A program made the translations under genes and the position numbers. The notes beneath the pieces were generated by a model that was given only the letters and a program-made list of their open reading frames with translations, did not search any database and was not told where the DNA came from. From Acidobacteriota bacterium (lineage in GTDB: Bacteria; Acidobacteriota; Blastocatellia; Pyrinomonadales; Pyrinomonadaceae): a stretch of 43,868 bases of DNA. Location of the stretch: NCBI GenBank assembly GCA_021323895.1, contig JAJPKD010000274.1:1-43868 (forward strand), in the 5' to 3' direction. Every line of letters starts with the position of its first letter. The first letter of the stretch is position 1. Positions 16,142 to 42,678 of the stretch are shown here, piece by piece.

Positions 16142-16279
16142 ATCCGCAGATTACGCCGATTGCACAGATAGAAAGTTAGGCTTTAGATCAGGTCGAAGAA
16201 GTTGACACCTGCGGACTCGTAATGCTCGGTCTTCTTGTTGATTGATTCTTAATCTGTGCAATTTGTGTAATCTGCGGAT
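16142..16279. repeat. Paired inverted repeat, TCCGCAGATTAC family, copy 1
   Basis: Two 28-bp arms, 16142-16169 and 16252-16279, are inverted copies. The outer 13 bp (ATCCGCAGATTAC) and the inner 11 bp (ATTGCACAGAT) pair perfectly around a 4-bp mismatch. The spacer is 82 bp. It begins 4 bp after the fumC stop. The same family recurs at 24222-24320. Confidence 0.8.
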
Positions 16280-16291
16280 AGCCCGCTCAAA

Positions 16292-16320
16292 CTGACAAAT
16301 CACCCGCCAGAGCTTATAAT
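16292..16320 (+). promoter_or_regulatory. Strong sigma70-type promoter for hsp20
   Basis: CTGACA at 16292-16297 and a perfect TATAAT at 16315-16320 are spaced by 17 bp, 50 bp before the hsp20 ATG. No CIRCE-type inverted repeat is visible around it. Confidence 0.65.
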
Positions 16321-16369
16321 TCATTCAAACGAACCCCGTTTAATTCAGATCAAGTTTGGAAGTGTTGCT

Positions 16370-16759
16370 ATGTCCGGCGAATCTCTTGAACGTTACTTCC
16401 GCATGATTCGTGACGATCGCCGCACCCGGCCTTCGGGCCGCTTGTGGTGTCCCGCTGCCGATGTGTATCGGACCCAGGATGGCTGGATCGTGAAAGTCGA
16501 TCTGGCCGGCATCAAACCTGCTGACGTGGAAATTAAGATAGACGATGACATCCTGCGCATCAGCGGATCGCGACGCGACGGTATTTGCGGCGAAGGCGTG
16601 TCGCACTATCAACTCGAAACTACTTACAGCCGGTTTGAAAAGATGATTCAGTTTCCCCGTTCGATCGAACATGCCTCGATCGATCGTGACTATCGTGACG
16701 GCTTACTGATTTTGCGGCTCCGCGAAGAACAGGAGCAGGCTCGGGCAGCGAAGCGTTAA
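16370..16759 (+). CDS. Small heat shock protein (Hsp20/alpha-crystallin)
   Basis: A 129-residue ATP-independent holdase that binds unfolding proteins in the cytoplasm. The alpha-crystallin domain spans about residues 25-120: PAADVYRTQDGWIVKVDLAGIKPADVEI, read as PAADVYRTQDGW and VDLAGIKPADVEI. It continues ILRISGSRRDG and ends in DGLLILRLREEQ, in place of the more usual GVL motif. The C-terminal I-x-I anchor is missing or replaced by a charged tail (EEQEQARAAKR). GGAAG precedes the ATG. lon starts 24 bp downstream, so the two are probably cotranscribed as a proteostasis pair. Confidence 0.93.
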   Translation: MSGESLERYFRMIRDDRRTRPSGRLWCPAADVYRTQDGWIVKVDLAGIKPADVEIKIDDDILRISGSRRDGICGEGVSHYQLETTYSRFEKMIQFPRSIEHASIDRDYRDGLLILRLREEQEQARAAKR

Positions 16760-16783
16760 CGCAATCGCATTCATAAAAATTTC

Positions 16784-19260
16784 ATGGCGCAAACAGAAAC
16801 TAACCTGAACAATTCGCCTTCGCAGCAGACTTCCAAAAAACCGGAAGGCGTGCCGTTCGTCATTCCGGTGCTGCCTTTGCAGAACACGACACTCTTTCCG
16901 GAAACGATGGTGCCGCTATCGGTGGGACGGCCCGGTTCGATGGCCGCAGTCGAAGCCGCGTTAGCGGGTGAAGAGAAGTTGCTCGCATGCATCAGCGTGA
17001 AACCCGATCGAACTTCCGAAGGCGATGCCAAGCCCGAGGATCTGTTCGAAGTCGGCACGCTGGTCATGATCAAGCGCATGGAGCGCGTCGAAGACACGCT
17101 GCATTTGATTGTCCAGGGTTCGGATCGCATTAAGTTGCTCGCGTGGGAGCAGCAGGAGCCTTTTCTGCGCGCGCGCGTTTCCATCCTTCCTGATCTGGAA
17201 CTCAAGGACAAAGAGACCGTCGAAGCGACCAAGCGCAATGTGCAATCGCTGATTCAACAGGCGCTGGCGTACCTGCCGCAGGTACCGCCCGAGGTTCGTT
17301 TGATCGTGCTGGGCGCGGACGATCCGGTGCGACTCGCCTATTTCCTCGGATCGATTCTCAGCATGGGTGTCGAAAAAGAACAGCAGATGCTCGAAGCGAA
17401 CACCGTCGATGAGTTGATGCACCTCGCGCACGATTTTCTCGCGCATGAAGTTGAAATCATCCGGCTGCGCTCGAAGATTGCCAGCGAAGCGCAGACGGAA
17501 ATGGACAAGGCGCAGCGCGATTACGTCTTGCGCCAGCAGATGAAAGCGATTCAGAAGGAGCTGGGCGAGGACGAAGGCGGCGAAGCTGCCGAGGCCGCGC
17601 AATTGCGCGAGCGTCTGGCGAAAGCTGATCTGCCCGACGACGTGCGCAAAGAAGCCGAACGCGAGCTGAACCGGATGGAGAAGCTGCCGGCGATGGCGCC
17701 CGACTACCACGTCATTCGCACGTACCTGGATTTCATTCTGGAGTTGCCCTGGCGAGTTTCGTCGGAAGACAAACTCGATCTGAAGGAAGCGCAAAATATT
17801 CTCGACGAGGATCACTACGACATTCAGGACGTCAAAGAACGCATCCTCGAATTTCTCGCGGTGATCAAGTTACGGCCTGACGCGAAGAGCCCGATTCTCT
17901 GTTTCGTCGGCGCGCCCGGCGTGGGCAAGACTTCGCTGGGCCGTTCGATCGCGCGCGCGATGGGGCGCAAGTTCGAGCGACTGAGTCTGGGCGGCGTGCG
18001 CGATGAAGCCGAGTTGCGCGGGCACCGGCGCACGTACGTTGGAGCGATGCCCGGTCGCATCGTGCAATCGATTCGGCGCGCGGCGGTGAATAATCCGGTG
18101 ATGATGCTCGATGAGATCGACAAGCTCGGCGCCGATTATCGGGGTGATCCGGCGGCGGCTTTGCTCGAGATTCTCGACCCCGAACAGAACAACACGTTCA
18201 CGGATCACTATCTGGACTTGCCGTTCGATCTGTCGCGCGTGTTCTTTATCGCAACGGCAAATCAACTTGGCCCAATTCCACCGCCGCTGCGCGATCGCAT
18301 GGAAGTGATCCAGCTGCGGGTTACAGCGATCGCGAGAAACTGCAGATCGCTAAGCGCTATCTGGCGCCACGGCAGATTCTCGAAAATGGATTGTCGGCAG
18401 ACCAACTCGAACTCACCGACGATGGAATCAAAGAGATCGCAACGCGCTATACGCGAGAAGCCGGCGTGCGCCAGCTCGAGCGGAACATCGGCCGCGTGGC
18501 GCGCAAAGTCGCGCTGAAGATCGCCCAAGGGCAGACCGGAAAAATCATCGTTGATGCCAGCGACATCAAGGGATTCCTCGGCGGGCCGAAATTCTATCCT
18601 GAAGAGGCGCGCAAAGAATTACCCGCGGGTGTTGCGACCGGCATGGCTTGGACTGAGATGGGCGGCGAGATTCTGTTCATCGAAGCGAACCTGTTGCCCG
18701 GCGGTCGCGGCTTTACGATCACCGGACAACTCGGTGAAGTCATGCAAGAGTCGGCGCGCGCCGCGCAATCCTATCTCTGGTCGCACGCGCAGGACTTCAG
18801 CATCGAGCCGTCAATGTTCAGGGATTACGGCGTGCACCTGCACGTGCCGGCGGGCGCGATTCCGAAAGATGGACCAAGCGCCGGTGTCGCGATTACCGCA
18901 GCGTTGGCTTCGCTTTATACCGGCCGCCGCGTACGGCCGGACACCTCGATGACGGGAGAGATCACTCTATCAGGATTAGTGTTTCCGGTCGGCGGCATCA
19001 AAGAAAAGGTTTTGGCCGCGCACCGCGCGGGCATCCGTCGTATCATTCTGCCTGCGCGCAACGAATCCGACCTCGAGGAGATTCCTGAAGATGTGCGCGC
19101 GGAACTGAACATCAAACTAATCACCCGCATCAATGAAATTGCCGACGTGGCGCTCGAGAAATTCGTCGCGAACCCGCCACCGCCAGTGCCACCCGAACTA
19201 ACGCGCCGGCCGCCCGATCGCGAGGCCGACTCGCAGCCGCTGATTGCAAGAGAGCGGTGA
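16784..19260 (+). pseudogene. lon: ATP-dependent protease Lon with a one-base frameshift
   Basis: Lon degrades misfolded and regulatory proteins. The frame from ATG 16784 encodes the N-terminal LON domain (PVLPLQNTTLFPETMVPLSVG), a coiled coil and the AAA+ module with Walker A GAPGVGKTSLG and MMLDEIDKLG. It then loses homology after DRMEVIQLR and stops at 18517. The following frame, open to 19260, continues exactly with GYSDREKLQIAKRYLAPRQ. It carries the sensor region and the protease domain with Ser in PKDGPSAGVAI and Lys in [10 protein letters not shown], 43 residues apart as in E. coli Lon. The break is at GGG 18318-18320; one additional G restores an 825-residue protein. No classical slippery heptamer is visible. 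The cause is either a true frameshift or a homopolymer sequencing error. Confidence 0.9.
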
Positions 19261-19281
19261 GATCCCGTCAATTTCCGGCCC

Positions 19282-19310
19282 TTGACTCATGGTTCTCATT
19301 GTGAGAACAT
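19282..19310 (+). promoter_or_regulatory. HigBA promoter with embedded palindromic operator
   Basis: TTGACT at 19282-19287 and GAACAT at 19305-19310 are 17 bp apart. The spacer holds GTTCTCATTGTGAGAAC (19292-19308), a perfect 7-bp inverted repeat around TTG. This is the arrangement expected for an autorepressor site bound by the XRE-type antitoxin encoded downstream. Confidence 0.65.
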
Positions 19311-19388
19311 CAACGAACAGTGAACCACCAGAGTGCCCGTTTAGGTAAGAGGCATACTTTCTTATTCACGATCAAAGGAGACAACACT

Positions 19389-19523
19389 ATGGAAACTCGC
19401 AAAGCTTGTTTCATTCGAAAGGAAGACAATAATGAACGTTATCAGCTTCAAGCGGCTCCGAGAATTTTCCTTGGATCACCGCGAAGCGGAGGTTGCGCTA
19501 ACCGCATGGTACAAGACTGCTAA
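19389..19523 (+). CDS. Possible 44-residue leader ORF overlapping higB
   Basis: An ORF of 44 codons starts at ATG 19389 with an excellent ribosome site (AAGGAG, 8-bp spacing). It runs 92 bp into higB in another frame. Only its first 14 codons lie before higB. The product (METRKACFIRKEDNNERY...) resembles nothing known to me. It could set the translation rate of the toxin gene, or its start could be an accident. Confidence 0.35.
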   Translation: METRKACFIRKEDNNERYQLQAAPRIFLGSPRSGGCANRMVQDC

Positions 19524-19719
19524 GAGAGCCAATTGGCAGAACTTTGCTGAATTGAAGCGGGTTTATCCCTCTGCTGATATGGTTGGGAGGTATACGGTAT
19601 TCAATATCAAAGGTAATAAGTACCGCTTGATCGCACGAATAGTTTATCGAAGTCAGACGTTGTTTATTGTAGCCGTTATGACTCATGAAAAGTACGACTT
19701 AGGAAAATGGAAAGAATGA
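19432..19719 (+). CDS. higB: HigB-type mRNA interferase toxin
   Basis: A 95-residue RelE-superfamily toxin that cleaves mRNA on the ribosome. The family pattern is clear: AEVALTAWYKTAKRANWQNF in the helical N-terminal half, then YTVFNIKGNKYRLIARIVY and VAVMTHEKYDLGKW in the beta sheet. The C-terminal THEKYD segment is a hallmark of this HigB branch. GAAAGGAAG upstream of ATG 19432 serves as ribosome site. Toxin precedes antitoxin, the usual order for hig modules. The region is visibly more AT-rich than its neighbours, consistent with acquisition by transfer. Confidence 0.9.
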   Translation: MNVISFKRLREFSLDHREAEVALTAWYKTAKRANWQNFAELKRVYPSADMVGRYTVFNIKGNKYRLIARIVYRSQTLFIVAVMTHEKYDLGKWKE

Positions 19720-20126
19720 AACGAGCAGTACGCAGAATTGATCCAACGCGTTACAAGAGGCTTTTGTCTCGCACCATGCCTGTAATCATTGAGACCGAAG
19801 CAGAGAACGAACGAATGTTGGCCGTTATAGAAAAGTTAATGGACAAAGGTGAGAGCTTGTCGCCTGAAGAGGAAAAACTTCTCAAGCTACTCACCAGACT
19901 GGTCGAAGATTTTGAAGAGCGTTATTACCACCCTAAAGATGCAAGTCCACTTGAGGTGCTGCACCATCTCATGGAGTCTCGAGAGGTCAAGCAGACCCAC
20001 CTTTTAGACGTGTTCGGCTCAAAAGGAATTGCCTCTGAAGTGCTAAATGGGAAAAGAGGAATTAGTAAGACCCAGGCAAGAGCATTGGCTAATTATTTTC
20101 ATGTTTCGGCTGATCTATTCATTTAG
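19707..20126 (+). CDS. higA: HigA-type antitoxin with XRE helix-turn-helix
   Basis: A 139-residue antitoxin that neutralises HigB and represses the operon. The N-terminal 75 residues are helical and acidic (ETEAENERMLAVIEKLMDKG and SLSPEEEKLLKLLTRLVEDF). The C-terminal part is an XRE-type DNA-binding domain with QTHLLDVFGSKGIASEVLNG and KRGISKTQARALANYF, as in HigA antitoxins. ATG 19707 is inside the end of higB. A second ATG at 19716 overlaps the higB stop as ATGA and may be the coupled start. The likely target is the palindrome at 19292-19308. Confidence 0.9.
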   Translation: MERMKRAVRRIDPTRYKRLLSRTMPVIIETEAENERMLAVIEKLMDKGESLSPEEEKLLKLLTRLVEDFEERYYHPKDASPLEVLHHLMESREVKQTHLLDVFGSKGIASEVLNGKRGISKTQARALANYFHVSADLFI

Positions 20127-20150
20127 TTCTCACGCTCCGTCTAGCTCGTC

Positions 20151-22447: not shown

Positions 22448-23053
22448 ATGAACAGGATTGGCTCGCTACTTCTGTTAGTTGTGGTGATCGCCGTGTCGGC
22501 GTCGGCCATTGAAGCTCAGAGACGTTGGGAGCGTCTGCCGCCGCCGCGCGATCCCCAGTTCTACGTGCCGCGGAACAAGCTTGAAGATTTCGATGGCCGC
22601 ATGGAAGTGCTTCTGATCAAGGGCCGAAGTTGGGCGGGCACGCTGCGCGCGCAAAATGGATCGGCCAGAGTGGAAGCGATCGAGATTCGCGACACTTCCA
22701 ATGCGGCGCAGGCCACCGGCGTCGTTGTTACGATCAACGCCGAAGGCGGCCCGCCGGGTGAAATTCGATCGCTAATTGATTACGACGAAATCGATGCGCT
22801 GGTTAAAGCGGTTGACACCGCAGCCAAAGCCGGCGAAACGATTACGAAGTTGACCCATTTCGAAGTTCACTATCGCACAAAGGGCGATTTTGAGGTGATG
22901 GTCTTCAAGCAGCTCTCGAACAATGCGATTGCGGCGGCAGTTGAAGGCGGCTTTTTCGATCGGTCCCGACTGTTGATGACGCTCGACGATCTTATCAAGC
23001 TGCGCTGGATGATCGTGCAAGCGAAAGAGAAGTTGGATGAGATTAAGGGCTAA
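22448..23053 (+). CDS. Hypothetical secreted protein
   Basis: I do not recognise a family. It has 201 residues from ATG 22448, chosen because AAGGAG at 22433-22438 has a 9-bp spacing to it; a GTG one codon earlier is also possible. The signal peptide is about residues 1-23 (LLLLVVVIAVSASAIEAQ). The mature part starts RRWERLPPPRDPQFYVPRNK, read as RRWERLPPPRDP, and has an alternating beta/alpha look (RMEVLLIKGRSWAGTLRA, HFEVHYRTKGDFEVMVFK). There are no cysteines and no catalytic motif. It is divergent from the S9 peptidase gene and not clearly part of an operon. Confidence 0.75.
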   Translation: MNRIGSLLLLVVVIAVSASAIEAQRRWERLPPPRDPQFYVPRNKLEDFDGRMEVLLIKGRSWAGTLRAQNGSARVEAIEIRDTSNAAQATGVVVTINAEGGPPGEIRSLIDYDEIDALVKAVDTAAKAGETITKLTHFEVHYRTKGDFEVMVFKQLSNNAIAAAVEGGFFDRSRLLMTLDDLIKLRWMIVQAKEKLDEIKG

Positions 23054-23055
23054 GA

Positions 23056-23124
23056 GCAAACGGCAAAGCGCTAAGAGTTAAGTGGCAGAATGCTTGGCTG
23101 TTTGCACTTACCACTTTGTGCTAA
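23056..23124. repeat. Imperfect inverted repeat downstream of the secreted protein gene
   Basis: The convergent gap holds text such as GCTAAGAGTTAAGTGG and, in inverse sense, CCACTTTGTGCTAA, plus GCAAAC/GTTTGC. It resembles the other paired-arm elements in style, but the pairing is weak. Confidence 0.35.
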
Positions 23125-24208: not shown

Positions 24209-24221
24209 AAATGTTTAGTTG

Positions 24222-24320
24222 TCCGCAGATTACGCAGATTACACAGATAGGAAATGCAACCGGAGATCAAGAGTCAGCTATACTCATGCCCTAATCTGTG
24301 AAATCTGCGTAATCTGCGGA
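24222..24320. repeat. Paired inverted repeat, TCCGCAGATTAC family, copy 2
   Basis: Arms of 27 bp at 24222-24248 and 24294-24320 are inverted copies with one mismatch. They share TCCGCAGATTACGCAGATTA-type text with the element at 16142-16279. The spacer is 45 bp and unrelated to that of copy 1. It lies between the SDR gene and the UBP finger gene, both on the minus strand. Confidence 0.8.
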
Positions 24321-24330
24321 TGGTGCTTCT

Positions 24331-25122: not shown

Positions 25123-25130
25123 GACGTCTG

Positions 25131-25242
25131 TGTCAGTACCGCGAGCGATAGCGAGCGGATATAACAAGCTCCATTGAGAAAAAACGTGAAACGTATGCGC
25201 CAGATTCATTTGATCCGCTCGCTATCGCTCGCGGTACTGACA
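25131..25242. repeat. REPIN: two perfect 30-bp inverted arms
   Basis: Arms 25131-25160 and 25213-25242 are perfect 30-bp inverted copies around a 52-bp spacer. Each arm begins with GTCAGTACC-type text and contains a GCGATAGCG core. It begins 3 bp from the cupin stop and ends 9 bp from the SDR start, so it fills the intergenic space of this pair. A related single arm sits in the xanthine dehydrogenase gene at 1874-1906. Confidence 0.85.
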
Positions 25243-25244
25243 CG

Positions 25245-25619: not shown

Positions 25620-25643
25620 TGGTTCGTCTCCTGTTCGATGTGA

Positions 25644-25667
25644 CGCAAATTGCCAATTTGCGCTACA
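25644..25667. repeat. Dispersed palindromic repeat, intergenic copy
   Basis: A 24-bp sequence identical to 740-763, with the hairpin CGCAAATT-GCC-AATTTGCG. It lies in the 271-bp gap between the divergent cupin and poly-Gln protein genes. I see nothing else definite in this gap. Confidence 0.7.
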
Positions 25668-27843: not shown

Positions 27844-28284
27844 TTAGGGCTTAGGGCATTGGGTGTAGGGTGTAGGGGGTTAGGGTGCAGCAGCGCCGCA
27901 ATGCGGGATGGCGGACTACTGGAAATTCGTGCTAGATCAGTTTCTTAATTTGAAATCCCCAGGTCGATTTCTGGCTCTAATCACAACCACGAGACAGCCA
28001 ACAAATCCAACAACCGAAACAAGAAGGACGGCGCCATAAATTTGAGCAGCCCGCATGGCTCTGTTCGGTCTGAAATCAACACTATTACCCCCTAAGCTAA
28101 GGATGACAAAGGCGAGCAAGCAGTACAGCGAAGGAAGCGGAAAGAGCACCAAACCAATCTTTGACAACGTTCGCTTCATTTCGCGGCCGCCTCTCTGCTC
28201 TAACCGAAACTTGGACACTACCGGCCACCAGCTCACTTGGATGGTCTTCGTTTCTCTACACCCAAACCCCTAACACCTACACCC
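27844..28284. repeat. Inverted TTAGGG-like arms flanking a small membrane-protein gene
   Basis: The left arm (27844-27887) is GGGTGTAGGGTGTAG-type text with TTAGGG units. The right arm (28259-28284) is its inverse (CCCCTAACACCTACACCC). The core 26-27 bp match with a few differences. The arms enclose about 370 bp containing the small membrane protein gene, and the right arm forms the last codons of the esterase gene. Confidence 0.6.
27937..28236 (-). CDS. Small two-helix membrane protein, function unknown
   Basis: I do not recognise a family. It has 99 residues from GTG 28236, which overlaps the esterase stop (GTGA), or 80 residues from ATG 28179. Two transmembrane helices are clear (IGLVLFPLPSLYCLLAFVIL and IYGAVLLVSVVGFVGCLVVV), followed by a short basic tail (IRARNRPGDFKLRN). 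It is the third gene of the M61-esterase chain by position. Because it lies between inverted repeat arms it may instead be a passenger of an inserted element. Confidence 0.6.
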   Translation of the reverse strand: MSWWPVVSKFRLEQRGGREMKRTLSKIGLVLFPLPSLYCLLAFVILSLGGNSVDFRPNRAMRAAQIYGAVLLVSVVGFVGCLVVVIRARNRPGDFKLRN

Positions 28285-31566: not shown

Positions 31567-31662
31567 GGTTTTGAGTTCTGAGTTGCATCGTTTACGCTAC
31601 CGGCTGGATGATCGTGAGCGGATTCGAGGAGATATCAAAACTGAAAACTGAAAACCCAAAAC
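31567..31662. repeat. Paired inverted repeat, AAAACTGAAAACTG family
   Basis: The left arm (31567-31584, GGTTTTGAGTTCTGAGTT) and right arm (31639-31662, AACTGAAAACTGAAAAC-type) are inverted relatives with a few mismatches. They lie between doxX and the MFS gene. The right arm ends 4 bp before the MFS start codon, so no ribosome site is visible there. Confidence 0.5.
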
Positions 31663-31666
31663 TGCT

Positions 31667-32929: not shown

Positions 32930-32932
32930 GAG

Positions 32933-33020
32933 TTAGCCGCAGATGAACGCGGATTGCGCGGATAGAAGAGAAAGCTAGTTTCTTTTCTATCCGCGCTTAT
33001 TTGCGTCTATCCGCGGCTAA
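32933..33020. repeat. Long inverted repeat between convergent genes; possible bidirectional terminator
   Basis: Left arm from 32933 (TTAGCCGCAGATGAACGCGG-type) and right arm ending 33020 (CTATCCGCGGCTAA) are inverted copies of about 41 bp, roughly 80% matched, meeting around a short loop near 32975. The A/T-rich inner part (GAAGAGAAA...TTTCTTTTC) would give a U-tract in either direction, so it could end both the MFS and giant-gene transcripts. It resembles the TCCGCAGATTAC family in style. Confidence 0.7.
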
Positions 33021-33028
33021 TTCTCTGT

Positions 33029-36000
33029 TCAGGGTCCAAATCGGCGACGATACTCAGTCGAGGTGAGGAACGCCTTGACCATTTCAGCGTCGATGTAATT
33101 ACCGTTGAATTGGTTCAGCTTGCTGAGCCAGAAGTTATAGCCCGCAAAGTTCAGGCCCGGCTCAGGCGCTGCATCCGGGTTTCTCCGCAGGTAACCGAAA
33201 TACTGCAACAGCACAAACGCGCGATTGAACTCGCGTTGCGCGAGCGTAGCGTTCTCAGCAACTTTCCTGAGGACACTGGCTCGCAACGTCGGGTTCGACG
33301 GGTTCGGCGACAACTCGCTGATCAGTGCCGCGCGTTCGCTAAACGACAGCACGTTGCCCGCGTTCGCATCCAGGGCGTCAACGAAAGCCGTTGCGCTCAA
33401 CGCCGCGGGATAGCGCGTCAGGAATGCGGGCCGTTGCACGAAGGCTTGAGCAAACGCCGTCTTGTTGGTGTCGAGCTGCGCCTGCCAGTTGCCGACACCC
33501 ACGATCACTCCGTTGCCGATCTGCTGCGTGTCCGTCAGGAAATTGGTGAATCGGACGGGCACCGGAATGGTCGGCGGATTGATGTCACCGAAGCCTGCCT
33601 TGTACGTTCGCTCGACGAAATAGCCGGTGTTCTGGAATTCAATCGACAGGAAGAAGGCCGCCGAAGTATCGATGCGTCTCACTTCGCGACATTGAGCGTT
33701 CGCTCCGCACGAGTCGATGTTGTTCTTCCAGAAAGCGAGACCCGACGGGTCGGGTTCGCGACTCAGGAAGTCGCGATACTGTTGCCGCACGAATGTGTCG
33801 GTGTCGTCCAGCGGATTGCCAGCCGGCTCAGTCACATCATCCGCGATTGTCAGTGTCGCCGTCATCGTCGTCGCGCCGGGTGTGGGGAAGCCAACTCCCG
33901 CTCCGGTCAAATTCGAGAGCGTCAGCGTCAACGATTCCGGACCTTCGACGAAGTTGTCCTGATTGATCAGGACAGTGAACGTCTTGGATGCGCCATCGCC
34001 TGATGCCCAACTCAACGTTCCCAGCGCCGTCTCAAAATCGCATCGGGAAGACGCGACACCACTCGCCGTGGAACACGGCAGCACCGTCGTGGCCGTGCTG
34101 TCATCGGGCGTCGCGTAGTTCACCGTGACGGCTTGAGATAAATCACCAATTCTTTGCACGGTGATCGTGGTGAAGCCTGCGCCTTCTGTGGTGTTGTAGG
34201 TCGCTGAGCTGAACCGAATGATCGATCCAACCTGTTGACCGCCCGACAGCGTGCCGCTGCTCGTGTTGAAGTTGGCGTCGCCGCTGTAGTCAGCCGTGAT
34301 GGTGTGTAGTCCTGGCGTCAGGGCGCTCGTCGAGAAGGTCGCTACTCCGCTGCCGTTCAAAGTCTGGGGCGAGCCGAGATTCGTGCCGCCGTCTTTGAAC
34401 TGGACTGTGCCTGTGGGCGTACCGGCGCTCGAAGCCACCGTCGCCGTAAACGTAACGCTTTGTCCGTTATTCGACGGATTGGGCAATGCGGTCAAAGCGG
34501 TAGTCGTTGCGGCCTTGGCAATGCTGAAAGTCTGCGGCACGTTCGTGGCGGCGTTGTAGTTGCTGTTACCGGCCTGTGAAGCGGTGATCGTGCAACTGCC
34601 GGCGCCAGTGAGGTGAACCGTTCCCGGAGCCGGTGTCGTCACCGTGCAATTGCCGCTCGCGCCGAGCGTGACTGCCAAGCTCGAGGATGCCGTCGGCGAA
34701 ACAACGAAGTCAGCGTCGCCAAACGTCTTGCCGGCAATCGATGCAAACGTGATCGTCTGGCTGGCCTTCGCAATGTTGAAGGTTTGCGAGAGATCCGACG
34801 CGGCGTTGTAAGTTGCGTTGCCTGCTTGAGAGGCCGGGATGGTGCAGCTTCCGGCTCCCGTGATGTGGACGGTGCCGGGCGCTGGAGTACTAACCGTGCA
34901 GTTGCCGCTCGCGCCGAGCGTGACTGCCAAACTTGACGAGGCAGTCGGGGAAACAACGAAATCTGCGTCGCCAAACGTCTTACCGGAAATTGATCCAAAC
35001 GTGATTGATTGGTTCAACTTGTTATTCGTCAGGCTGAAGCTCACCGTCGGAATGTTCGGCCCAACACTCGCGACGACGTTGTATGAACCGCCGATCGCAT
35101 TCGCCGTGAAGGTTGGCGCAGTCGCCACTCCGCTCCCGTCCGTGTTCACCGTGGCGGTCAGCGAGCTGCCGGGGAAAGTGCCGCTGGCGCCGCTGTTTGG
35201 CGCCGTGAACGTCACCCCGATCCCGGAAATGGGATTCCCCGAATTGGTCAACGTCGCCTTCAAAGCAGTTCCGAGAGCCGAATTGACGTTTGTGTTTTGT
35301 CCTGAGCCCGCGGTTACGGTCAACACGTAGTTGGTTTCGACCGCGCCGATGTCAACGGCGCTTCCAACTGCGCGATTGAGTCCGCGCTGATCGAACGGCA
35401 GCGGTTCCGAGGTATCGCTATTGCCGTTTAGATCGAAGGTGTCCGCGGGCAAGTTCGCATTGCTGCCGGCGTTGATTGCCGAACTTGCGGGCTGCGGCAA
35501 ATGAGTTTGCGTCGGTCCGCCATTGGCTGCCAAAGCCCCCAGCAGCGCGTTAATGGGCGAGCCGGCTGAGCCAACTTGATTGCCGTTGGATCCGTTCGTG
35601 ATGCCGGTCATGTTTGTGCCGTCACCGATTAGATTGAACGAACTGCTCGCATCGACTGCGCCACTGACATCATCACGAGTTGTTCCAGTGCCCCGGAAAT
35701 TACCGGCCACGATCGTGTTCTTCAGGGTCACTGTGCCGGCGTTGCGGAAAATGCCTCCGCCTTGCTCGGCGCCGCTGTTGTCAGAATCGGAACGGTTGTT
35801 GGTAATGGTCGCGTTGGTTGCGGTCAGCGTTCCAGCGCCATCGTTGTAAACTCCGCCACCTTGTCCGGCCGAGCTATTTCCGCTGATGGTGCCGTTAATG
35901 ATTGTCAGCGCGTTGGTGTTAACGAAACCGCCGCCGAAGCTCACCGAAATGTTGCCGCTCACCGTGCTGTTCAGCAGGGTTAGCGTGCCGCCGTTGGAAA

Positions 36001-39000
36001 TTCCACCGGCGCGGTCCGCGCTGTTGCGGGTAATCGTCACCTTGTTAAGGACCAACGTCCCGGAATTGAGAATGCCGCCACCCGGATTGACGGCAATGAA
36101 GCTCGGACTGATGCCCTCGGTCTTGTCCTCACTTGCGGCTGGAATCACCGCGCCATTGAGGTTGCCATTGGTGATTGTCAGCCCAGAGATGTTTACCGTA
36201 AAGGTGCTGGCTACGTTGAAGATGCGGAAGTTCGGAGTTCCGCCCGCGGTACTGCGCTGCACCGTCAACAGGTTCGCGCCAGGTCCCGTAATGGTCAGGT
36301 TCTTATTGATCAGCAATTCGCCACTCGTCAGCGAAATCGGACTCGCCACCTGACTCATGTCAAAAACGATGGTTGCGCCATCACACGCGTCAGCGATGGC
36401 CTGACGCAGACTTCCGGCTCCACTGTCGGCATTAGTCGTGACGACTGGATTGGTCAAACACGCAAACACGTCGGTATTCGCCGAGGAGTTGTTGTTGTCC
36501 GGATTGGGATCGTTTGTGCTGGAGCTAACCGTGAGGGTGTTGAAGTAAGACGTTCCCGGCGAAGCGCTCGAAGGGATGTGAGCCGTAAGAGTGAACACAT
36601 TGCTGCTGCCGACCGCGAAGCTGGCGTTTGTACAGCTGACTGTGCCGTTGGCGCCCACCGACGGAGTCGTGCATGACCAACCGGCCGGACTCGACAACGA
36701 AACAAACGTCATGTCGCCCGGTAACGGATCAGTCAGGGTTACACTCGCAGCCGCGTCCGGACCCGGATTGATGACAGTGAGCGAATAGACAATGTCGCGA
36801 TCGGGCAGAGAATTAGCCGCGTTCGCGGACTTCGTTACGCCCATGTCCGCACTCGCCGGAGGCGGCGTGAACGGCTTTTCAAATGCGCCAATATCGACGG
36901 TCACATGAACGACGCGCGGGAAGCCAGTTCCACGTTGGTCCGTGGTGAGCGCATTATTGTTCTGATCAACCGCCACCGAATTCTTACCGGTGTCGATTGC
37001 CGGACTGAAATCCCCAAGCGCTCGTGTGAACGTCGGCCCGCCGTTGTCTTGCAGTGCTCCCAGCAATGGGTTGACCGTTGCTTCGGTGGTGCCGATCTGA
37101 TTTCCATTGTCGTTGGTGATTCCGATCGCGCCCGTGCCGTCGCCTATCAGATTGTTCGAGCTGGAAGAGTTGATCGTGCTCTCCGGACTGCCGGCAAAGA
37201 AGAAATCAGCCGGCGCGCAGAAAATATCATTAGCGGCGTCACCAGCACTTTGGCCCAGCGCGACGATCGTGTTGTTGAGAGTGATCGGGTTGCTGCTGGT
37301 CTGCGCAATGTTGCCGCCATTCTGCCCATTCGACGTGTTACTTGCGATGGTCACATTCGTCAGCAGTGTTTGCGAAGTCCCCGAGTTGAATAACCCACCA
37401 CCATTGCCGTCTGCCTGATTGCCGCTGATCGTCGTGTTGATGATCTTGACCGTGCCGCCTCCGGTGTTGATGGCGCCGCCCTCACCCGGCGATCCAACCG
37501 CACTATTGCCCGTGAAGGTGCAATTGGTGATCGTCAGATTGCCGAGGCTATAGATTCCGCCGCCTGCTGTTGACTGCCCATTGGCGATGGTCAGGTTTGA
37601 GATAGCGAAATTCTTGGACGCGCTGATATTGAAAACGCGGCCGGCGCTATTCCCGCTGATCGTCAGGCTCTTAGCAGTTGATCCAGCAATCGTCAGATTC
37701 TTGGCAATGGCCAACTCGCCGGTGGTCAAAGTGATCGTGTCTGGGCCGCCGCCGGGGATGTTGAAATCGATCGTACCGCCATCACAGATGTCCGCGATCG
37801 CCTGACGCAATGAGCCCGCGCCCGAATCGTTGGTATTCGTTACCGTGATCGAGCTCTGGCCAGCGGCCAACGTAGTTGCGAGCGATGGGGCGCTGGAGCA
37901 ACCAGCGCCGGTTACAACTACCGTGTAGTTACCGATCTGGTTCGCGATGTAATTCTGATTATTGGCCCCGCCAATTGGATTTCCATTTAGATACCATTGA
38001 TTTCCGGTGGCGCTGCTCGAAGTCAGCGTGACGCTGCCGCTGGGACAGAGACTTGTGGTACCACTTGGGTTAATCGTCGGCGTCGCCGGAATTGGATTGA
38101 TCGTCACAGGCTGCGAACCCGAGACCACGCAACCATTCGGCGCGTTGACCGTCAGGTTCAACGTCACATTGCCCGACGCGCCCGCAGTGTAGGTTACGCT
38201 CTGAGTGTTAGTGGCCGACGTGATCGTGCCATTGGTAATACCCCACGCATAACTCGTCATGCCCGCTGGACCCGATGCCGTGTTGCCGGTCGAATTGGAA
38301 CAGACGGCGGCGGGCGTAGGCGTAATTGTGGCGGTGGTGCCACTACAAGCGACGACGTTGAAGCAGATAGTCGCATCGTTCAGCGACGGTGTGACATTCG
38401 CGTCGGTCGTAGAAAGAAACGCTTTGTACCGAAGATAGCGGAAGTTGTAGAACTGACTGAGAGAGACCGGACTCGTCGTGAAGAAAGTTCCGGCGGTCCC
38501 ATCAGGCCCGACGAAATTGAATGGGCCGTTCGGCGAATTACTTCCGGCTACCTGGAAATTGATGGCCGTGTTCGCCGGCGTGGTCGCGTTCCAACTGAGA
38601 GTACCCCAAATCGCAGTCTTGCCGGCGGAAGGATTCGCATCCTTTACTGAAGATATTAGGTTACCGGCGGTGAGATTCTGACCCATCCACACACGGAAGC
38701 CCGCGTCGGTGGTCTGAGTCGAGGTGAGCGGACTCGACCAGACTGTCCCGCTTGAGCTGCCAGAAAGGCGCATGCCTCCGGAATAGACGTCGGCGCCGCT
38801 GCGCGTCAGAGCATACGTGCCAGTAGGATTCACATTAGGATGAATAATGAAGGCGTACATGGTGCCGCCCGTGAGTGCCACGGGAGACGCAAACGTCGCG
38901 GTGTAATACTGCTGGGTGCCACTAATAAAACCGGGAATCGTCGCGGTAGCGAGATCCGCGCCTGTCGGAAAGCCGCCGCTCGTGGCGCGGATGCCGACGG

Positions 39001-41443
39001 TCAGGTTTTGCGGCGAGCCAGAACAACTGCTGCAAAAGAGATTGATGTCGATCTTCGTGACCTGTCCCGTGCTGATTGGAGTGAAAGTTTGGCCACCCCA
39101 AGTCGTCGCCGTGACACTGCCGCCCGACGTGGTAATAAGTGAGTTCTGCGGATCACCAGTCGAAAGGACCGCAGAACCCGGTGTCGTTACGAGATCGACG
39201 CCGGCGGGTGTGCCGCCCTGCAAGTCGATCTGGGTGGTGTCCACGAGGCAACCGGTCGTAGGGGCGTCGGCCAACGAAAAGTTTTGCGTGGTGGTATTGC
39301 CGTCAGTCACCGAAACCGCCGATGCCGAGGCAGCGATGAAACCGGGCTTACTCGCGCCGACTGAGGGATAAGTGCCAGCCGGAATGGAAAATGAATAGAA
39401 CCCGGCACCGTTTGTCGTGGTAGATCGCGAGCCGAACTGCACGGTGCTCCCCGCGATCGGTGCGCCACCGTTTGTGGCAGTCACGGTGCCGGAGAGAGTG
39501 CCGCCTGCGCCGACCGGCGTACAACCCGGAAATGGACCAAACGAGCCGATGCGCGTCAGATGATTGAGCCCGTCAACGGCGTAATACATGTTGGTGTACC
39601 AGAAAGTACAGCCGTTGGGATCGAGCGACATAGTGCTGTAGTCGCCCCAACGGGTACATGTTGAGCCGCCGCAGGTTCCCGTCTGCGTTCCCGTGCCCTG
39701 AATTAGAAGCTGCTCAGTCTGGCTGAAAGTGTTAATCGGATCGGTTGCCAGCCTGCCTGCGTACATGATCGCCGGCTTGGTCGTGCTGCTCGAAGTGCTG
39801 TAGCCGAGCGCCATGTCGCCCGCGCGATCGACTGCAAGACTCGGCATGAAGCGATACATTACGTTGGCCCCGTCGGGATCCCATGTCGTTGCTTGCGAAA
39901 TGTTGGGATTCACAGTGCCGCCGCTAACGTCCACCTGATACCAGCGCGGCGCAGCGAAACCGGATGTATTGCCTCTGCGGACGGTGTGTGTGGCCCACAG
40001 CGATTCAACGCCGCCAATGTTTGTGTACTGGTTCTGCATCATTGCCCGGATCTGCAGCACGTCGAGCGCGTTGCCGCCGAGCGATGGTGCGTTCGGTACC
40101 GCGGCGTTCGGCCAGCTCGTCGCAGCGGACGGTACGTCGGGCCCGGTGAAAGTCGATTGCGAAATGTGATTCCAATCGACGTGAAACTTGTATACCGTCA
40201 CCGCATTAAGATAGAGCCAGGTTGATAGATAGTAGTTCGGCGTACCTGGGGCCGGGGTGCCTGTTTGCAGCCGCGCGTTCGAATGAAGAATGGTGAAATC
40301 GCCGCCGAGAATATCGAATGAGACGACCTGTGGGTTCGCTACGCCGGCATACATCTGTTGCTTGTTAAAAGCATAGGCGCGTGCGTTCTGAAACGGCGCG
40401 CCACTCGGGAAGCCGAAGATACTCGCGGTCATGTACAGACCATCCGGCCAGATACCAAACTTGGGATAGTCGCCCAGACCGTAAGCGGTGTTTATCGAAT
40501 AGAAGTTCCATCCGCCTGAAACTGGATCACCGGTCTGCGATGCAGCTATGCACTGAAATGCCCCCGGCGGATTAACGACATTGCCGCTGCTAAGTTGAAA
40601 AGCAAAGTCGGTAATAATCCAACGGTCTTCGAAAGTATCGTAGAGGATGACAGGATCGCCGAAGTTATTTGTGTCACACAGGTTCCCAAAACTCCCCTGG
40701 CTCATGAATGTGTTCAGTGTGAACGCGGCAACGCGCACGCCGTCTGATTTGCGGAAGATGCCGATTGAAGAGTTAATCGATTGGATGTAGTAAGTCGGAC
40801 CGACATCACCGACAGTATCTGGCGGATGCCCCGCGCCCCACGTGGCGAAATCCAGACCATCAAAGCTTGCTGTGGGTGCGGGCGCGGGCGCGCTTGGCGT
40901 AATCTGTTGCCCGGGCGCGGCCAGATCTACTTGCGGCTGTACAGAACTTCTGCCCGGAAAAGTGATCGGGTTGGGCTCAGGCTCTTCACGCTCGGGCCGC
41001 TCGCGCTTGATGGGTGTCCGATAGGGCAAACTGCGGAGATCGCCCTTGAACGGACGCGCACTGGTGAGACGTTCTTCTTTCGGTTTAGATCTCCCCTGGT
41101 CACGCTGGGTAGGATTTTGCGCTGTTATTTCTTGCTGGAAACTGCCATCTGCTTTCGGCTCCTGCTCAGTTAAGGCTCGAGCGAAATTCGTTTCCGACGC
41201 CCCAATCACGGACGAAGTATTTGACGATCCGGTTCTGGCAGATAGTGTTCGCGGAGTGGCAAATACCTGTGCCCATCTTTGCTCCGCAGTTCCCGCCTCT
41301 TGCGCACTGAGCTTGGCGCGGGTCGTTTGCAACACGCCCAAAGCTACGATTGACACGACTGACAGTATGATTGCGCCAAAGCGCAGAACGCTGACCGACA
41401 CACGGCGGTCCGAGCGCCTCTTAAGGGGATTTGATTTTTTCAT
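33029..41443 (-). CDS. Giant multidomain secreted protein (beta-helix, DUF11, Ig-like, Calx-beta, DUF4214-like)
   Basis: A 2804-residue exported protein, probably cell-surface or matrix. A basic signal segment with a hydrophobic core lies at residues 20-48. Residues about 190-645 look like a propeller-type domain (FDGLDFATWGAGHPPDTVGD). A carboxypeptidase-regulatory-like domain follows (645-735), then Ig/PKD-like regions to about 1195. Two beta-helix parts with SGAGSLRQAIAD starts lie near 1198-1525 and 1668-2035. A DUF11 domain sits between them (VVYSLTVINPGPDA-type). Then come a Big1-like domain, two near-identical 84-residue repeats (2141-2310), an Ig-like domain, Calx-beta (2408-2535) and a C-terminal DUF4214-like region (2540-2801). 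No sortase or PEP-CTERM signal is seen. An adhesin or matrix role is inference. The ORF is uninterrupted. Confidence 0.9.
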   Translation of the reverse strand: MKKSNPLKRRSDRRVSVSVLRFGAIILSVVSIVALGVLQTTRAKLSAQEAGTAEQRWAQVFATPRTLSARTGSSNTSSVIGASETNFARALTEQEPKADGSFQQEITAQNPTQRDQGRSKPKEERLTSARPFKGDLRSLPYRTPIKRERPEREEPEPNPITFPGRSSVQPQVDLAAPGQQITPSAPAPAPTASFDGLDFATWGAGHPPDTVGDVGPTYYIQSINSSIGIFRKSDGVRVAAFTLNTFMSQGSFGNLCDTNNFGDPVILYDTFEDRWIITDFAFQLSSGNVVNPPGAFQCIAASQTGDPVSGGWNFYSINTAYGLGDYPKFGIWPDGLYMTASIFGFPSGAPFQNARAYAFNKQQMYAGVANPQVVSFDILGGDFTILHSNARLQTGTPAPGTPNYYLSTWLYLNAVTVYKFHVDWNHISQSTFTGPDVPSAATSWPNAAVPNAPSLGGNALDVLQIRAMMQNQYTNIGGVESLWATHTVRRGNTSGFAAPRWYQVDVSGGTVNPNISQATTWDPDGANVMYRFMPSLAVDRAGDMALGYSTSSSTTKPAIMYAGRLATDPINTFSQTEQLLIQGTGTQTGTCGGSTCTRWGDYSTMSLDPNGCTFWYTNMYYAVDGLNHLTRIGSFGPFPGCTPVGAGGTLSGTVTATNGGAPIAGSTVQFGSRSTTTNGAGFYSFSIPAGTYPSVGASKPGFIAASASAVSVTDGNTTTQNFSLADAPTTGCLVDTTQIDLQGGTPAGVDLVTTPGSAVLSTGDPQNSLITTSGGSVTATTWGGQTFTPISTGQVTKIDINLFCSSCSGSPQNLTVGIRATSGGFPTGADLATATIPGFISGTQQYYTATFASPVALTGGTMYAFIIHPNVNPTGTYALTRSGADVYSGGMRLSGSSSGTVWSSPLTSTQTTDAGFRVWMGQNLTAGNLISSVKDANPSAGKTAIWGTLSWNATTPANTAINFQVAGSNSPNGPFNFVGPDGTAGTFFTTSPVSLSQFYNFRYLRYKAFLSTTDANVTPSLNDATICFNVVACSGTTATITPTPAAVCSNSTGNTASGPAGMTSYAWGITNGTITSATNTQSVTYTAGASGNVTLNLTVNAPNGCVVSGSQPVTINPIPATPTINPSGTTSLCPSGSVTLTSSSATGNQWYLNGNPIGGANNQNYIANQIGNYTVVVTGAGCSSAPSLATTLAAGQSSITVTNTNDSGAGSLRQAIADICDGGTIDFNIPGGGPDTITLTTGELAIAKNLTIAGSTAKSLTISGNSAGRVFNISASKNFAISNLTIANGQSTAGGGIYSLGNLTITNCTFTGNSAVGSPGEGGAINTGGGTVKIINTTISGNQADGNGGGLFNSGTSQTLLTNVTIASNTSNGQNGGNIAQTSSNPITLNNTIVALGQSAGDAANDIFCAPADFFFAGSPESTINSSSSNNLIGDGTGAIGITNDNGNQIGTTEATVNPLLGALQDNGGPTFTRALGDFSPAIDTGKNSVAVDQNNNALTTDQRGTGFPRVVHVTVDIGAFEKPFTPPPASADMGVTKSANAANSLPDRDIVYSLTVINPGPDAAASVTLTDPLPGDMTFVSLSSPAGWSCTTPSVGANGTVSCTNASFAVGSSNVFTLTAHIPSSASPGTSYFNTLTVSSSTNDPNPDNNNSSANTDVFACLTNPVVTTNADSGAGSLRQAIADACDGATIVFDMSQVASPISLTSGELLINKNLTITGPGANLLTVQRSTAGGTPNFRIFNVASTFTVNISGLTITNGNLNGAVIPAASEDKTEGISPSFIAVNPGGGILNSGTLVLNKVTITRNSADRAGGISNGGTLTLLNSTVSGNISVSFGGGFVNTNALTIINGTISGNSSAGQGGGVYNDGAGTLTATNATITNNRSDSDNSGAEQGGGIFRNAGTVTLKNTIVAGNFRGTGTTRDDVSGAVDASSSFNLIGDGTNMTGITNGSNGNQVGSAGSPINALLGALAANGGPTQTHLPQPASSAINAGSNANLPADTFDLNGNSDTSEPLPFDQRGLNRAVGSAVDIGAVETNYVLTVTAGSGQNTNVNSALGTALKATLTNSGNPISGIGVTFTAPNSGASGTFPGSSLTATVNTDGSGVATAPTFTANAIGGSYNVVASVGPNIPTVSFSLTNNKLNQSITFGSISGKTFGDADFVVSPTASSSLAVTLGASGNCTVSTPAPGTVHITGAGSCTIPASQAGNATYNAASDLSQTFNIAKASQTITFASIAGKTFGDADFVVSPTASSSLAVTLGASGNCTVTTPAPGTVHLTGAGSCTITASQAGNSNYNAATNVPQTFSIAKAATTTALTALPNPSNNGQSVTFTATVASSAGTPTGTVQFKDGGTNLGSPQTLNGSGVATFSTSALTPGLHTITADYSGDANFNTSSGTLSGGQQVGSIIRFSSATYNTTEGAGFTTITVQRIGDLSQAVTVNYATPDDSTATTVLPCSTASGVASSRCDFETALGTLSWASGDGASKTFTVLINQDNFVEGPESLTLTLSNLTGAGVGFPTPGATTMTATLTIADDVTEPAGNPLDDTDTFVRQQYRDFLSREPDPSGLAFWKNNIDSCGANAQCREVRRIDTSAAFFLSIEFQNTGYFVERTYKAGFGDINPPTIPVPVRFTNFLTDTQQIGNGVIVGVGNWQAQLDTNKTAFAQAFVQRPAFLTRYPAALSATAFVDALDANAGNVLSFSERAALISELSPNPSNPTLRASVLRKVAENATLAQREFNRAFVLLQYFGYLRRNPDAAPEPGLNFAGYNFWLSKLNQFNGNYIDAEMVKAFLTSTEYRRRFGP
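34515..35019 (-). repeat. Tandem 84-residue repeat within the giant protein gene
   Basis: Two adjacent units of 252 bp encode nearly identical 84-residue domains (KTFGDADFVVSPTASSSLAV in each). The offset is seen directly between ACCGTGCA at 34641 and 34893. The DNA similarity implies recent duplication or gene conversion. Confidence 0.8.
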
Positions 41444-41628
41444 TTATCTGATGCGGATTGCCAGGAAAAGAGAATCACTGAAGCCGGCGATCTTAATGAA
41501 TCAACGCGTTCCGTGAATAACCTTTGACTTGCCTTCTTTTCGACTCAAATTGAACCAGCAAAGAGAAGTTATCACAGACGTATCGCAGTAACCAATTCAA
41601 GAGGCCGAGATGTCTTATGAGGATTGCG

Positions 41629-42585
41629 CTAACCGCGCCGCATAGAAATCTCAGCCGCGCAAAAATCCTTTAGCTCATCCAACTCTGGCAGCGCTGCGCG
41701 CCCGCCGAGCGCGCGACATTTCAATGCTGCGACGGCATTACCTAATCTCATGCACGTTTCCAAATCTTCTTCGCGCAACATGCCAAAGATAAAGCCCGCG
41801 TGAAATGCATCGCCTGCGCCCGTCGTGTCACGACAACCGCCAGGAACCTCGCACGCCGGTGATTCAATGAATTGACCTTGACAGAGAAGGATTGCTCCGT
41901 TTGCGCCCAGTGTCGCGCCGACAATCGCACAGCCATACCGAGATTTGATTTCAGCGAGCGCGGTTCGCAGATCGCTGATTCCGGTGAGTCGCTGCGGAAA
42001 TTCCGAAGAAGTAATCAGGACATCAATCAAAGGCAGCAGTTCTGGAAGTCCTTCGTAAACGTTGTCGATGTCGGCCGTAACTGCCGCGCCCGCTGCATGA
42101 GCCGCGCGCGCCAATTCGACACAAGCCGGCGGATCGTGCGCGTCCAGGTGAAGGATGCGACCTCGTGACGCAAGTTCGGTCGGCACTTCGTCGGCACGAT
42201 AAGACAATCGCTCGTCACGATCCCAGATGATCGTGCGCTCGCCGGAACGCGCATCGATGATAATGAAGGCCACCTGAGTGTTGGCGCCTTCGATTGTCTC
42301 TGCATAATTAAGATTCACGCCCTCGTATTCCAGCGACAGCAAACCAAACTGCCCATCTTCATCTGATCCAAATCTGCCTGCATAAGCGGTCCTCAATCCG
42401 AGTCGCTGCAATGCGACCATCGCCGTTGCAGTTTGTCCGCCGGCGGACTTCTCGTATTCGCTGAAGCGAGTTTTCGTGTCGAACGCCGGATAATGCGGCA
42501 CGACGAGCAGATGATCGACCGCGTTCAGGCCAAAGCCGACAGCATCGAAATCTTTTTCTCCCGGCAACTCAACTGGCAAGCGCAT
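41629..42585 (-). CDS. PfkB-family sugar kinase
   Basis: A 318-residue ribokinase-type kinase that phosphorylates a sugar or nucleoside. The N-terminal AGGQTATAMVALQRLG motif and the C-terminal DTTGAGDAFHAGF signature with the catalytic Asp are both intact. The substrate cannot be assigned. ATG 42585 is preferred; a TTG at 42603 would add six residues (MWTVFL) that approach a repeat arm. It is divergent from uvrC. The giant gene lies 185 bp downstream on the same strand. That gap contains no convincing terminator or promoter. Confidence 0.9.
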   Translation of the reverse strand: MRLPVELPGEKDFDAVGFGLNAVDHLLVVPHYPAFDTKTRFSEYEKSAGGQTATAMVALQRLGLRTAYAGRFGSDEDGQFGLLSLEYEGVNLNYAETIEGANTQVAFIIIDARSGERTIIWDRDERLSYRADEVPTELASRGRILHLDAHDPPACVELARAAHAAGAAVTADIDNVYEGLPELLPLIDVLITSSEFPQRLTGISDLRTALAEIKSRYGCAIVGATLGANGAILLCQGQFIESPACEVPGGCRDTTGAGDAFHAGFIFGMLREEDLETCMRLGNAVAALKCRALGGRAALPELDELKDFCAAEISMRRG

Positions 42586-42608
42586 CAAGAACACCGTCCA
42601 CAACTCAA

Positions 42609-42678
42609 GGTCAGGAAAGTGGGTTTACCCCCGCTTTCGAAATAGGTCAAGCAGGCGGGGCAAGCGCCCTTCCTGACC
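42609..42678. repeat. Inverted repeat between pfkB and uvrC
   Basis: GGTCAGGAA at 42609-42617 and TTCCTGACC at 42670-42678 are perfect 9-bp inverted ends. The inner sequence has further complementary G/C text (GGGTTTACCCCC and GGCGGGGCAAGCGCCC). It lies in the divergent gap, so it cannot be a simple terminator for either gene. Confidence 0.6.

What the first reader, a model, noticed from the sequence alone, without database searches (positions are those of the whole stretch)
16142..42678. Many unrelated families of paired inverted repeats fill the intergenic gaps
At least nine gaps contain two inverted arms of 9-41 bp around a short unrelated spacer: 4535-4656, 7277-7344, 12506-12551, 16142-16279, 24222-24320, 25131-25242, 31567-31662, 32933-33020 and 42609-42678. 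They fall into at least six sequence families, and two families have two copies in this window. The arm/spacer layout matches REPINs (paired REP sequences). Having so many distinct families side by side is unusual, since one genome usually has one or two. No RAYT transposase is in the window.
Basis: partly seen in the sequence, partly recalled or inferred. Interest (0 to 1): 0.72.

Follow-up and report, generated by a model that had tools for sequence, protein, structure and literature searches.

The report
Tiny mobile elements crowd gene gaps
Most of the paired inverted repeats between these genes look like the ends of three unrelated kinds of very small mobile DNA element, two of them built around widespread proteins of unknown job (the four-helix-bundle 'S23' protein and the GxxExxY nuclease-like protein).

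Summary
In detail: all nine pairs exist, well above chance. The REPIN reading holds for one family: the 25130-25243 arm surrounds a RAYT-like gene elsewhere in the genome. The CGCAGATTA-type arms (16142, 24222; 32933 is similar) flank the genome's only GxxExxY (PF13366) gene. The 7-mer arms (4535, 7277, 31567) match arms flanking its S23 (PF05635) genes; all eight S23 genes lie between inverted heptamer arrays, each with its own heptamer. By one score, 56 of 66 S23 genes and 44 of 56 GxxExxY genes, sampled from several phyla, are flanked this way, against 18 of 216 shifted controls. Arms are alike when the proteins are close, point inward only (50 of 97 paired inward, 0 outward), and also occur without a gene. 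Among nine Nostoc plasmids two S23 elements are present in some and cleanly absent in others, at stop/start junctions. Congeners carry different classes in the same gap. Three palindromic families remain unassigned. Mobility of S23 elements is well supported and that of GxxExxY elements is argued by likeness. That these proteins do the moving is inferred; the chemistry is unknown.

The parts
4535..4659 (.). Gene-less pair, S23 type, heptamer AGAGGCT, 62-nt spacer between strict arms
   Evidence: same heptamer as arms of the S23 gene at G000:C144 (L135)
7277..7344 (.). Gene-less pair, S23 type, heptamer AGAGGCT, 13-nt spacer
   Evidence: matches L135 arms
12503..12555 (.). REP-like pair of palindromes CCGACTTCAGTCGG / CCAACTGAAGTTGG; driver unknown
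   Evidence: no convincing RAYT partner among 33 loci
16139..16282 (.). Gene-less pair, GxxExxY type (CGCAGATTA arms), 82-nt spacer
   Evidence: arm flanks the only PF13366 gene; same family at this gap in two congeners
23045..23116 (.).
   Evidence: matches arms of the S23 gene at G000:C66 (L142)
24222..24320 (.). Gene-less pair, GxxExxY type (CGCAGATTA arms), 45-nt spacer
25130..25243 (.). REPIN, RAYT type: two 31-nt identical inverted arms
   Evidence: arm surrounds the Y1_Tnp match at G000:C88
25639..25667 (.). Palindrome GCAAATTG/CAATTTGC, copy also at 736-762; driver unknown
   Evidence: no RAYT partner among 33 loci
27844..27885 (+). Single tandem heptamer array (TTAGGGC...), unpaired; by eye like arms of the S23 gene L137
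   Evidence: the likeness to L137 did not pass the score
31567..31662 (.). Gene-less pair, S23 type, heptamer like AAAACTG
   Evidence: right arm matches arms of the S23 gene at G000:C234 (L140)
32933..33020 (.). Gene-less pair, GxxExxY type (GCGCGGAT / CGCAGATGAA repeats), 5-nt spacer
   Evidence: class given by likeness to arms of GxxExxY genes such as L197, L304, L316, not by a matching gene in this genome
42604..42683 (.). REP-like inverted pair (GGTCAGGAAGGGCGC); driver unknown
   Evidence: no RAYT partner among 33 loci

Best explanation
The gaps are slots settled again and again by three unrelated kinds of very small mobile element. Each kind has a gene-bearing form (arm, gene, inverted arm) and gene-less pairs (arm, unrelated spacer, inverted arm): RAYT/REPIN; S23 elements (arms of roughly 4-6 tandem 7-mers around an S23 four-helix-bundle gene); and GxxExxY elements (arms of about 3 tandem 8-11-mers around a PD-(D/E)XK-type gene). 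SHOWN: arms bound the genes; arms go with the protein; inward polarity (tested for one arm family); gene-less arms in this genome match some of its own S23 genes; S23 elements are present or absent at conserved stop/start junctions. INFERRED: the encoded protein recognises both arms (one S23 subunit per 7-mer is a guess) and brings them together, and the unit moves with its spacer into gaps where insertion does no harm. GxxExxY would cut DNA itself; S23, with no known catalytic motif, would need a host nuclease or polymerase. Gene-less pairs are moved in trans by the resident protein, decay, and the gap is settled by another kind.
For: Own genome: the only PF13366 gene lies between exact 24-nt inverted copies of the window arm; 8 of 8 distinct PF05635 genes lie between inverted heptamer arrays. 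General: 31/36 and 25/30 S23 genes, 23/27 and 21/29 GxxExxY genes above the 99% level of 1000 random positions against 18/216 shifted positions in the same loci. Polarity 50 of 97 inward, 0 outward. Co-variation of arms and protein. Gene-less arms match own S23 families: 4 of 8 own against 8 of 49 foreign families, p=0.007. Filled and empty sites in nine Nostoc plasmids and in Picosynechococcus PCC 7003/7002. Flank homology stops beside the arms at the C197 element. Different classes in one gap among congeners.
Against: 10 of 66 S23 and 12 of 56 GxxExxY loci do not pass the score; with the stricter cross-pair control 25/36, 21/30, 17/27, 14/29 pass. Loci are mostly best matches per genome. Spacers of gene-less pairs show no GxxExxY remnant (0 of 31), so deletion origin is not shown. 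The overall S23 protein-arm correlation is weak (r 0.07; 48 of 500 permutations as high). No filled/empty pair was found for a GxxExxY element. S23 has no known catalytic motif. No excision or transposition was observed. Named S23 locus L366 and GxxExxY locus L323 fail the score.
Confidence: 0.76

Rival explanations
1. S23 and GxxExxY elements are mobile, but the encoded proteins are passengers or regulators; another enzyme in trans moves anything with such ends.
For: S23 shows no known catalytic motif (conserved residues); spacers without the gene are common; no defence or transposase model matched.
Against: Arms go with the protein: S23 pairs of at least 60% identity share arms in 8 of 10, and GxxExxY arms and proteins correlate (0 of 500 permutations). 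PD-(D/E)XK residues are invariant in 50 of 50 GxxExxY proteins.
Confidence: 0.16
2. The pairs are host-useful hairpins (terminators, mRNA ends), which every gap needs; S23 and GxxExxY genes merely lie near or bind them, and nothing moves.
For: In many congeneric gaps some inverted pair is present, whatever its family; arms can form hairpins; GxxExxY arms show a mild G:U excess on the gene strand (115 against 82).
Against: Nostoc gaps X/Y and Y/Z are 3 nt or less to 4 nt where the element is absent. Arms pair inward only and go with the protein. No G:U excess for S23 arms (94 against 114).
Confidence: 0.05
3. All families are REPINs moved by RAYTs.
For: RAYT-like genes occur here and in 18 of 20 relatives searched; the 25130 family surrounds one; three other families are palindromic.
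Against: Heptamer and CGCAGATTA arms bound other genes. The palindromic families at 42604 and 736/25639 were not found, and that at 12503 only weakly, in 33 RAYT-like loci.
Confidence: 0.03

Closest known systems
REPIN/RAYT system (PMC3116915, passages read)
   Same: Short inverted pairs in extragenic DNA, arm family tied to one protein, gene-less copies, several families side by side
   Different: Proteins are S23 or GxxExxY, not RAYT; arms are tandem 7-mers or 8-11-mers, not palindromic REPs; spacers unrelated between copies
S23-encoding intervening sequences of 23S rRNA (Coxiella, PMC4990558, passages read)
   Same: S23 ORF in a unit with terminal inverted repeats; tandem heptamers beside the ORF; thought selfish
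   Different: Here the units lie between protein genes, have gene-less relatives, and each has its own heptamer
Inverted GGGAATC heptamer pairs of Xanthomonas (PMC4692102) and heptamer elements of Geobacter (PMC2700814), passages read
   Same: Intergenic tandem heptamers, paired in opposite orientation in many cases
   Different: There no partner gene was named; whether an S23 gene carries these heptamers was not tested here
Diversity-generating retroelement Avd protein (PMC10053308, passages read)
   Same: Related fold; S23 proteins L135 and L137 hit the Avd model weakly (E 7.5e-8, 9.3e-7)
   Different: Scores lie below the Avd cut-off and the genome has no PF00078 reverse transcriptase match
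MITEs and their parent insertion sequences (recalled)
   Same: Gene-less inverted-repeat copies beside gene-bearing ones
   Different: Gene-less spacers are not recognisable deletions of the gene-bearing form (0 of 31); no known transposase domain

Membership tests
REPIN (25130-25243 family) | Two REP arms in inverted orientation, multi-copy | tested here: met
   31/31 nt arms; further copies in L001, L014 and by BLAST elsewhere in the genome
REPIN (25130-25243 family) | Arm found beside a RAYT gene of the same genome | tested here: met
   Six copies around a partial Y1_Tnp match, L023
REPIN (heptamer and CGCAGATTA families) | Arm tied to a RAYT gene | tested here: not met
   Arms bound S23 or GxxExxY genes instead; the four RAYT-like rows of the own genome were not systematically scanned for every heptamer
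REPIN (families at 12503, 42604, 736/25639) | Arm tied to a RAYT gene | tested here: inconclusive
   No or only weak matches in 33 RAYT-like loci, which are a part of those in the relatives
S23 element | S23 gene between inverted heptamer arrays | tested here: met
   8 of 8 in own genome by eye; 56 of 66 by score over all
S23 element | Present/absent at conserved junctions | tested here: met
   Nostoc plasmids, Picosynechococcus; own genus
GxxExxY element | GxxExxY gene between inverted arrays of 8-11-mers | tested here: met
   Own genome 1 of 1; 44 of 56 by score over all
GxxExxY element | Present/absent at conserved junctions | not tested
   The one search made for it (L325) found only its own record
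23S rRNA IVS | Lies within a 23S rRNA gene | tested here: not met
   No Rfam match in the window; the own C197 S23 element and named plasmid S23 genes lie between protein genes
MITE | Internal-deletion copy of a gene-bearing element | tested here: inconclusive
   0 of 31 family-A spacers match the GxxExxY profile; one spacer (L075) by eye keeps a start like the GxxExxY N-terminus

The most novel reading that the evidence does not exclude
S23 proteins, known mainly from rRNA intervening sequences, are the core of a bacteria-wide class of DNA elements that move without a known transposase: an oligomer that reads about five tandem 7-mers per arm, with a specificity that changes as fast as the protein, and uses host enzymes for strand transfer. 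rRNA intervening sequences are one niche of it. GxxExxY elements are a second, independent class. Together they explain much of the unexplained intergenic repeat families shared across bacterial phyla.
Probability: 0.4. Interest if true: 0.93.

Novelty: new variant of a known kind. Interest (0 to 1): 0.84.

Why it matters
Two very common families of unknown function gain a role that can be tested, and puzzling intergenic repeats (tandem heptamers, CACAGAG and CGCAGATTA arrays) gain an origin. It makes the open question of how S23 intervening sequences spread testable outside rRNA, in cultured cyanobacteria. It gives a plain reason for S23 genes reported inside cas loci (PMC3936711): some are inserted elements. 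Replacement of one class by another in the same gap is a natural experiment on competition between mobile elements.

Tried and rejected
Known RNA or tRNA features: no Rfam match or tRNA in the window; intrinsic terminators were not scanned with the terminator tool. RNA-level selection on arms: no G:U excess for S23, a mild one for GxxExxY. Reverse-transcriptase-driven movement in this organism: no PF00078 match in a 95%-complete genome. Short pairs as internal-deletion copies of GxxExxY genes: 0 of 31 spacers of 45 nt or more matched the profile. Defence role: no PADLOC match for four proteins. One S23 element nested in another (L122): the sequence shows a truncated second S23 behind the right arm, not a clean nested insertion, so not used. 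Two Calothrix plasmid loci share their neighbourhood and count as one event. A first random-position control was spoiled by a stretch of N and redone. The fold search on the GxxExxY model was too weak to name a nearest nuclease.

Rows dropped: L143 (part of L141), L193 (below the family cut-off), L200 and L201 (fragments), L165 and L307 (short flank), L007 (all N). S23 and GxxExxY loci of other genomes are mostly the best-scoring match of each genome, not all matches. Out-of-phylum genomes were chosen because they carry the CGCAGATTA arm; 32 of the genomes behind 109 loci were used.

Full report
OBSERVATION. The nine pairs exist as described. In 278 kb of this genome a strict ungapped finder gives 17 pairs against 1 in one locally shuffled copy; four of the nine listed pairs are too weak for that finder. 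Arms are multi-copy: 24 exact hits of CCGCAGATTACGC in the genome against 0 for the reversed pattern. The genome is 4.4 Mb in 322 contigs and about 95% complete. It is probably an acidobacterium; this is inferred from likeness to titles such as 'Acidobacteria gp4', not from a name.

WHAT THE ARMS BELONG TO. The genome has one PF13366 (GxxExxY) gene. It lies between exact 24-nt inverted copies of the arm seen at 16142 and 24222. It has eight distinct PF05635 (S23, four-helix bundle) genes, one of them with an inner stop. By eye all eight lie between inverted arrays of about 7-nt repeats, a different heptamer for each; by score L136 (17.5) is marginal and L137 (16.0) falls just below the cut. 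It has Y1_Tnp matches at three places, one below the cut-off; one is surrounded by six copies of the 25130 arm. So the window's families sort into: GxxExxY type (16142, 24222; 32933 by likeness), S23 type (4535, 7277, 31567, the degenerate 23045; the single array 27844 by eye), RAYT type (25130), and palindromic families of unknown driver (12503, 42604, 736/25639).

IS THE LINK GENERAL? I scored the best inverted match between 350 nt upstream and downstream of each gene. The 99% level of 1000 random positions in this genome is 16.5. Above it are 31 of 36 S23 and 23 of 27 GxxExxY genes in Acidobacteriota (the phylum of the window's genome), and 25 of 30 and 21 of 29 in genomes of other groups, which had been chosen because they carry the CGCAGATTA arm. 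Positions shifted within the same loci give 18 of 216. RAYT-like genes, the known case, give 18 of 28. Against a stricter cross-pairing control (99%), which is inflated because related loci share arms, 25/36, 21/30, 17/27 and 14/29 pass. Loci are mostly the best match per genome, so intact copies are favoured. Among the plasmid loci of named organisms that I fetched, 12 of 13 S23 rows (some of them copies of one element) and 2 of 3 GxxExxY rows pass.

ANATOMY. S23 arms repeat with period 7 (best lag 7 or 14 in 25 of 32; 8 in 6; 9 in 1) and GxxExxY arms with 8-11 (22 of 23). Titles name Chloroflexi, Acidobacteria, Planctomycetes, Nitrospinae, Prevotella, Oligosphaeraceae, delta- and betaproteobacterial groups, NC10, WOR-3 and Peregrinibacteria. 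Of 97 such arms with 400 nt on each side, 50 have an inverted partner inward and none outward; spacers (54 pairs) run from 7 to 373 nt. A GxxExxY gene or gene fragment is in 6 of the 109 loci, in 5 of them within 160 nt inward of the arm.

CO-VARIATION. Arms within an S23 element are alike (median 0.62) while arms of different elements are not (0.18). S23 proteins at least 60% identical share arms in 8 of 10 pairs; below that, in 16 of 1530. Over all S23 pairs the rank correlation is only 0.07 (48 of 500 permutations as high), so arm specificity appears to turn over quickly. For GxxExxY r is 0.44 with 0 of 500. In the 278-kb sample heptamer arms match this genome's own S23 families in 4 of 8 cases (13 arm places) and foreign families in 8 of 49, p=0.007; the top foreign one belongs to a same-genus relative of an own family. 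The arm of the C197 element occurs at seven further places of the genome.

MOVEMENT. In nine Nostoc plasmids with the same gene row W-X-Y-Z, an S23 element sits between X and Y in three (pC052_D, pNsp_a and, with a shortened S23 frame, pNPM1); the gap is 3 nt in five, and one has another gene. A second S23 element with another heptamer sits between Y and Z only in pNsp_c; the eight others have a gap of -1 to 4 nt. Flanks suggest 3-bp repeats (CTA, ATG), but this is two sites only, and the second has about 36 extra bases at its right end. Gene-less pairs with the X/Y element's heptamer lie at W/X in pNsp_a and pC052_B with different spacers. In Picosynechococcus PCC 7003 an S23 element separates cas10 and cmr3; PCC 7002 lacks it. 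In the window's genus, flank homology around the C197 S23 element ends within a few bases of the arms. One congener has the same element; four have a short pair of another heptamer and one a palindromic pair. Outside the genus one relative has a RAYT-like ORF between REP arms. No such filled/empty comparison was obtained for a GxxExxY element (one search).

SAME GAP, DIFFERENT CLASS. At the gap of the 25130 REPIN, congeners have heptamer pairs (G063, G064), palindromic pairs (G062, G061) or the CGCAGATTA arm followed by masked bases (G060). At 31567 they have other heptamers or REP-type repeats. At 16139 the same family persists in two congeners. I read this as a few permissive gaps settled repeatedly. 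A host need for some hairpin there is the rival reading, weakened by the nearly empty Nostoc gaps.

MECHANISM. Shown: bounded units, polarity, co-variation, presence and absence of S23 elements. Inferred: the protein recognises its arms and drives movement, also in trans. GxxExxY keeps E, Y, D, ExK, Q, N and F in 50 of 50 aligned proteins, fitting a PD-(D/E)XK nuclease (the Pfam name); the fold model is moderate (pLDDT 74.6) and Foldseek gave no match at E 0.001, the first being SSO0001 at 0.015 (that this is a Cas4-type nuclease is recalled). S23 shows no such motif. Its only solved relative found is XCC0516, 2gsc, five chains; a title cited in PMC3936711 calls it an assembly of five four-helix bundles, hence the one-subunit-per-heptamer guess. 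No PF00078 reverse transcriptase match is in the genome.

LITERATURE. Ten searches of the open PMC library showed me no paper that links S23 or GxxExxY genes outside rRNA to inverted tandem-repeat ends. Listings were capped (15 of 1,476, 15 of 20); I read passages of nine papers. Subscription journals and preprints are mostly not covered. Known pieces: S23 ORFs in rRNA intervening sequences with inverted ends and heptamers in Coxiella (PMC4990558), inverted heptamer pairs in Xanthomonas without a partner gene (PMC4692102), heptamer elements in Geobacter (PMC2700814), heptamers in Beggiatoaceae (PMC4679880), S23 genes in cas loci (PMC3936711), S23 ORFs in rRNA insertions of CPR bacteria (PMC11270868), REPINs (PMC3116915).

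VERDICT. Two further element classes account for most of the rest, and three palindromic families are open. I rate the class as a new variant of known small mobile elements. If S23 itself proves to move DNA, it would be a new kind.

Noticed in passing
L321 (Picosynechococcus sp. PCC 7003), L322 (Pseudanabaena galeata): S23 genes lie inside CRISPR-cas operons (cas10|S23|cmr3; cas6|S23|cas4); the first is absent from PCC 7002. Reports of S23 genes in cas loci may be insertions rather than cas genes.
   Followed up: partly
window 736-762 and 25639-25667; L011 11210: Palindrome GCGCAAATTGGCAATTTGCGC in at least three copies in the sampled genome, driver unknown.
   Followed up: partly
L122 579-1106: A full S23 gene with arms, followed directly by a truncated second S23 of another sequence.
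   Followed up: partly
L329 and L326, gap between genes W and X (Nostoc plasmids): Same insertion site and similar outer heptamer arms but a different spacer, one holding a further hairpin.
   Followed up: no
window 33029-41443, minus strand: A single open reading frame of 2804 aa; not examined.
   Followed up: no
L007 (G000:C100, 2572 bases): This contig of the window's genome reads entirely N.
   Followed up: no
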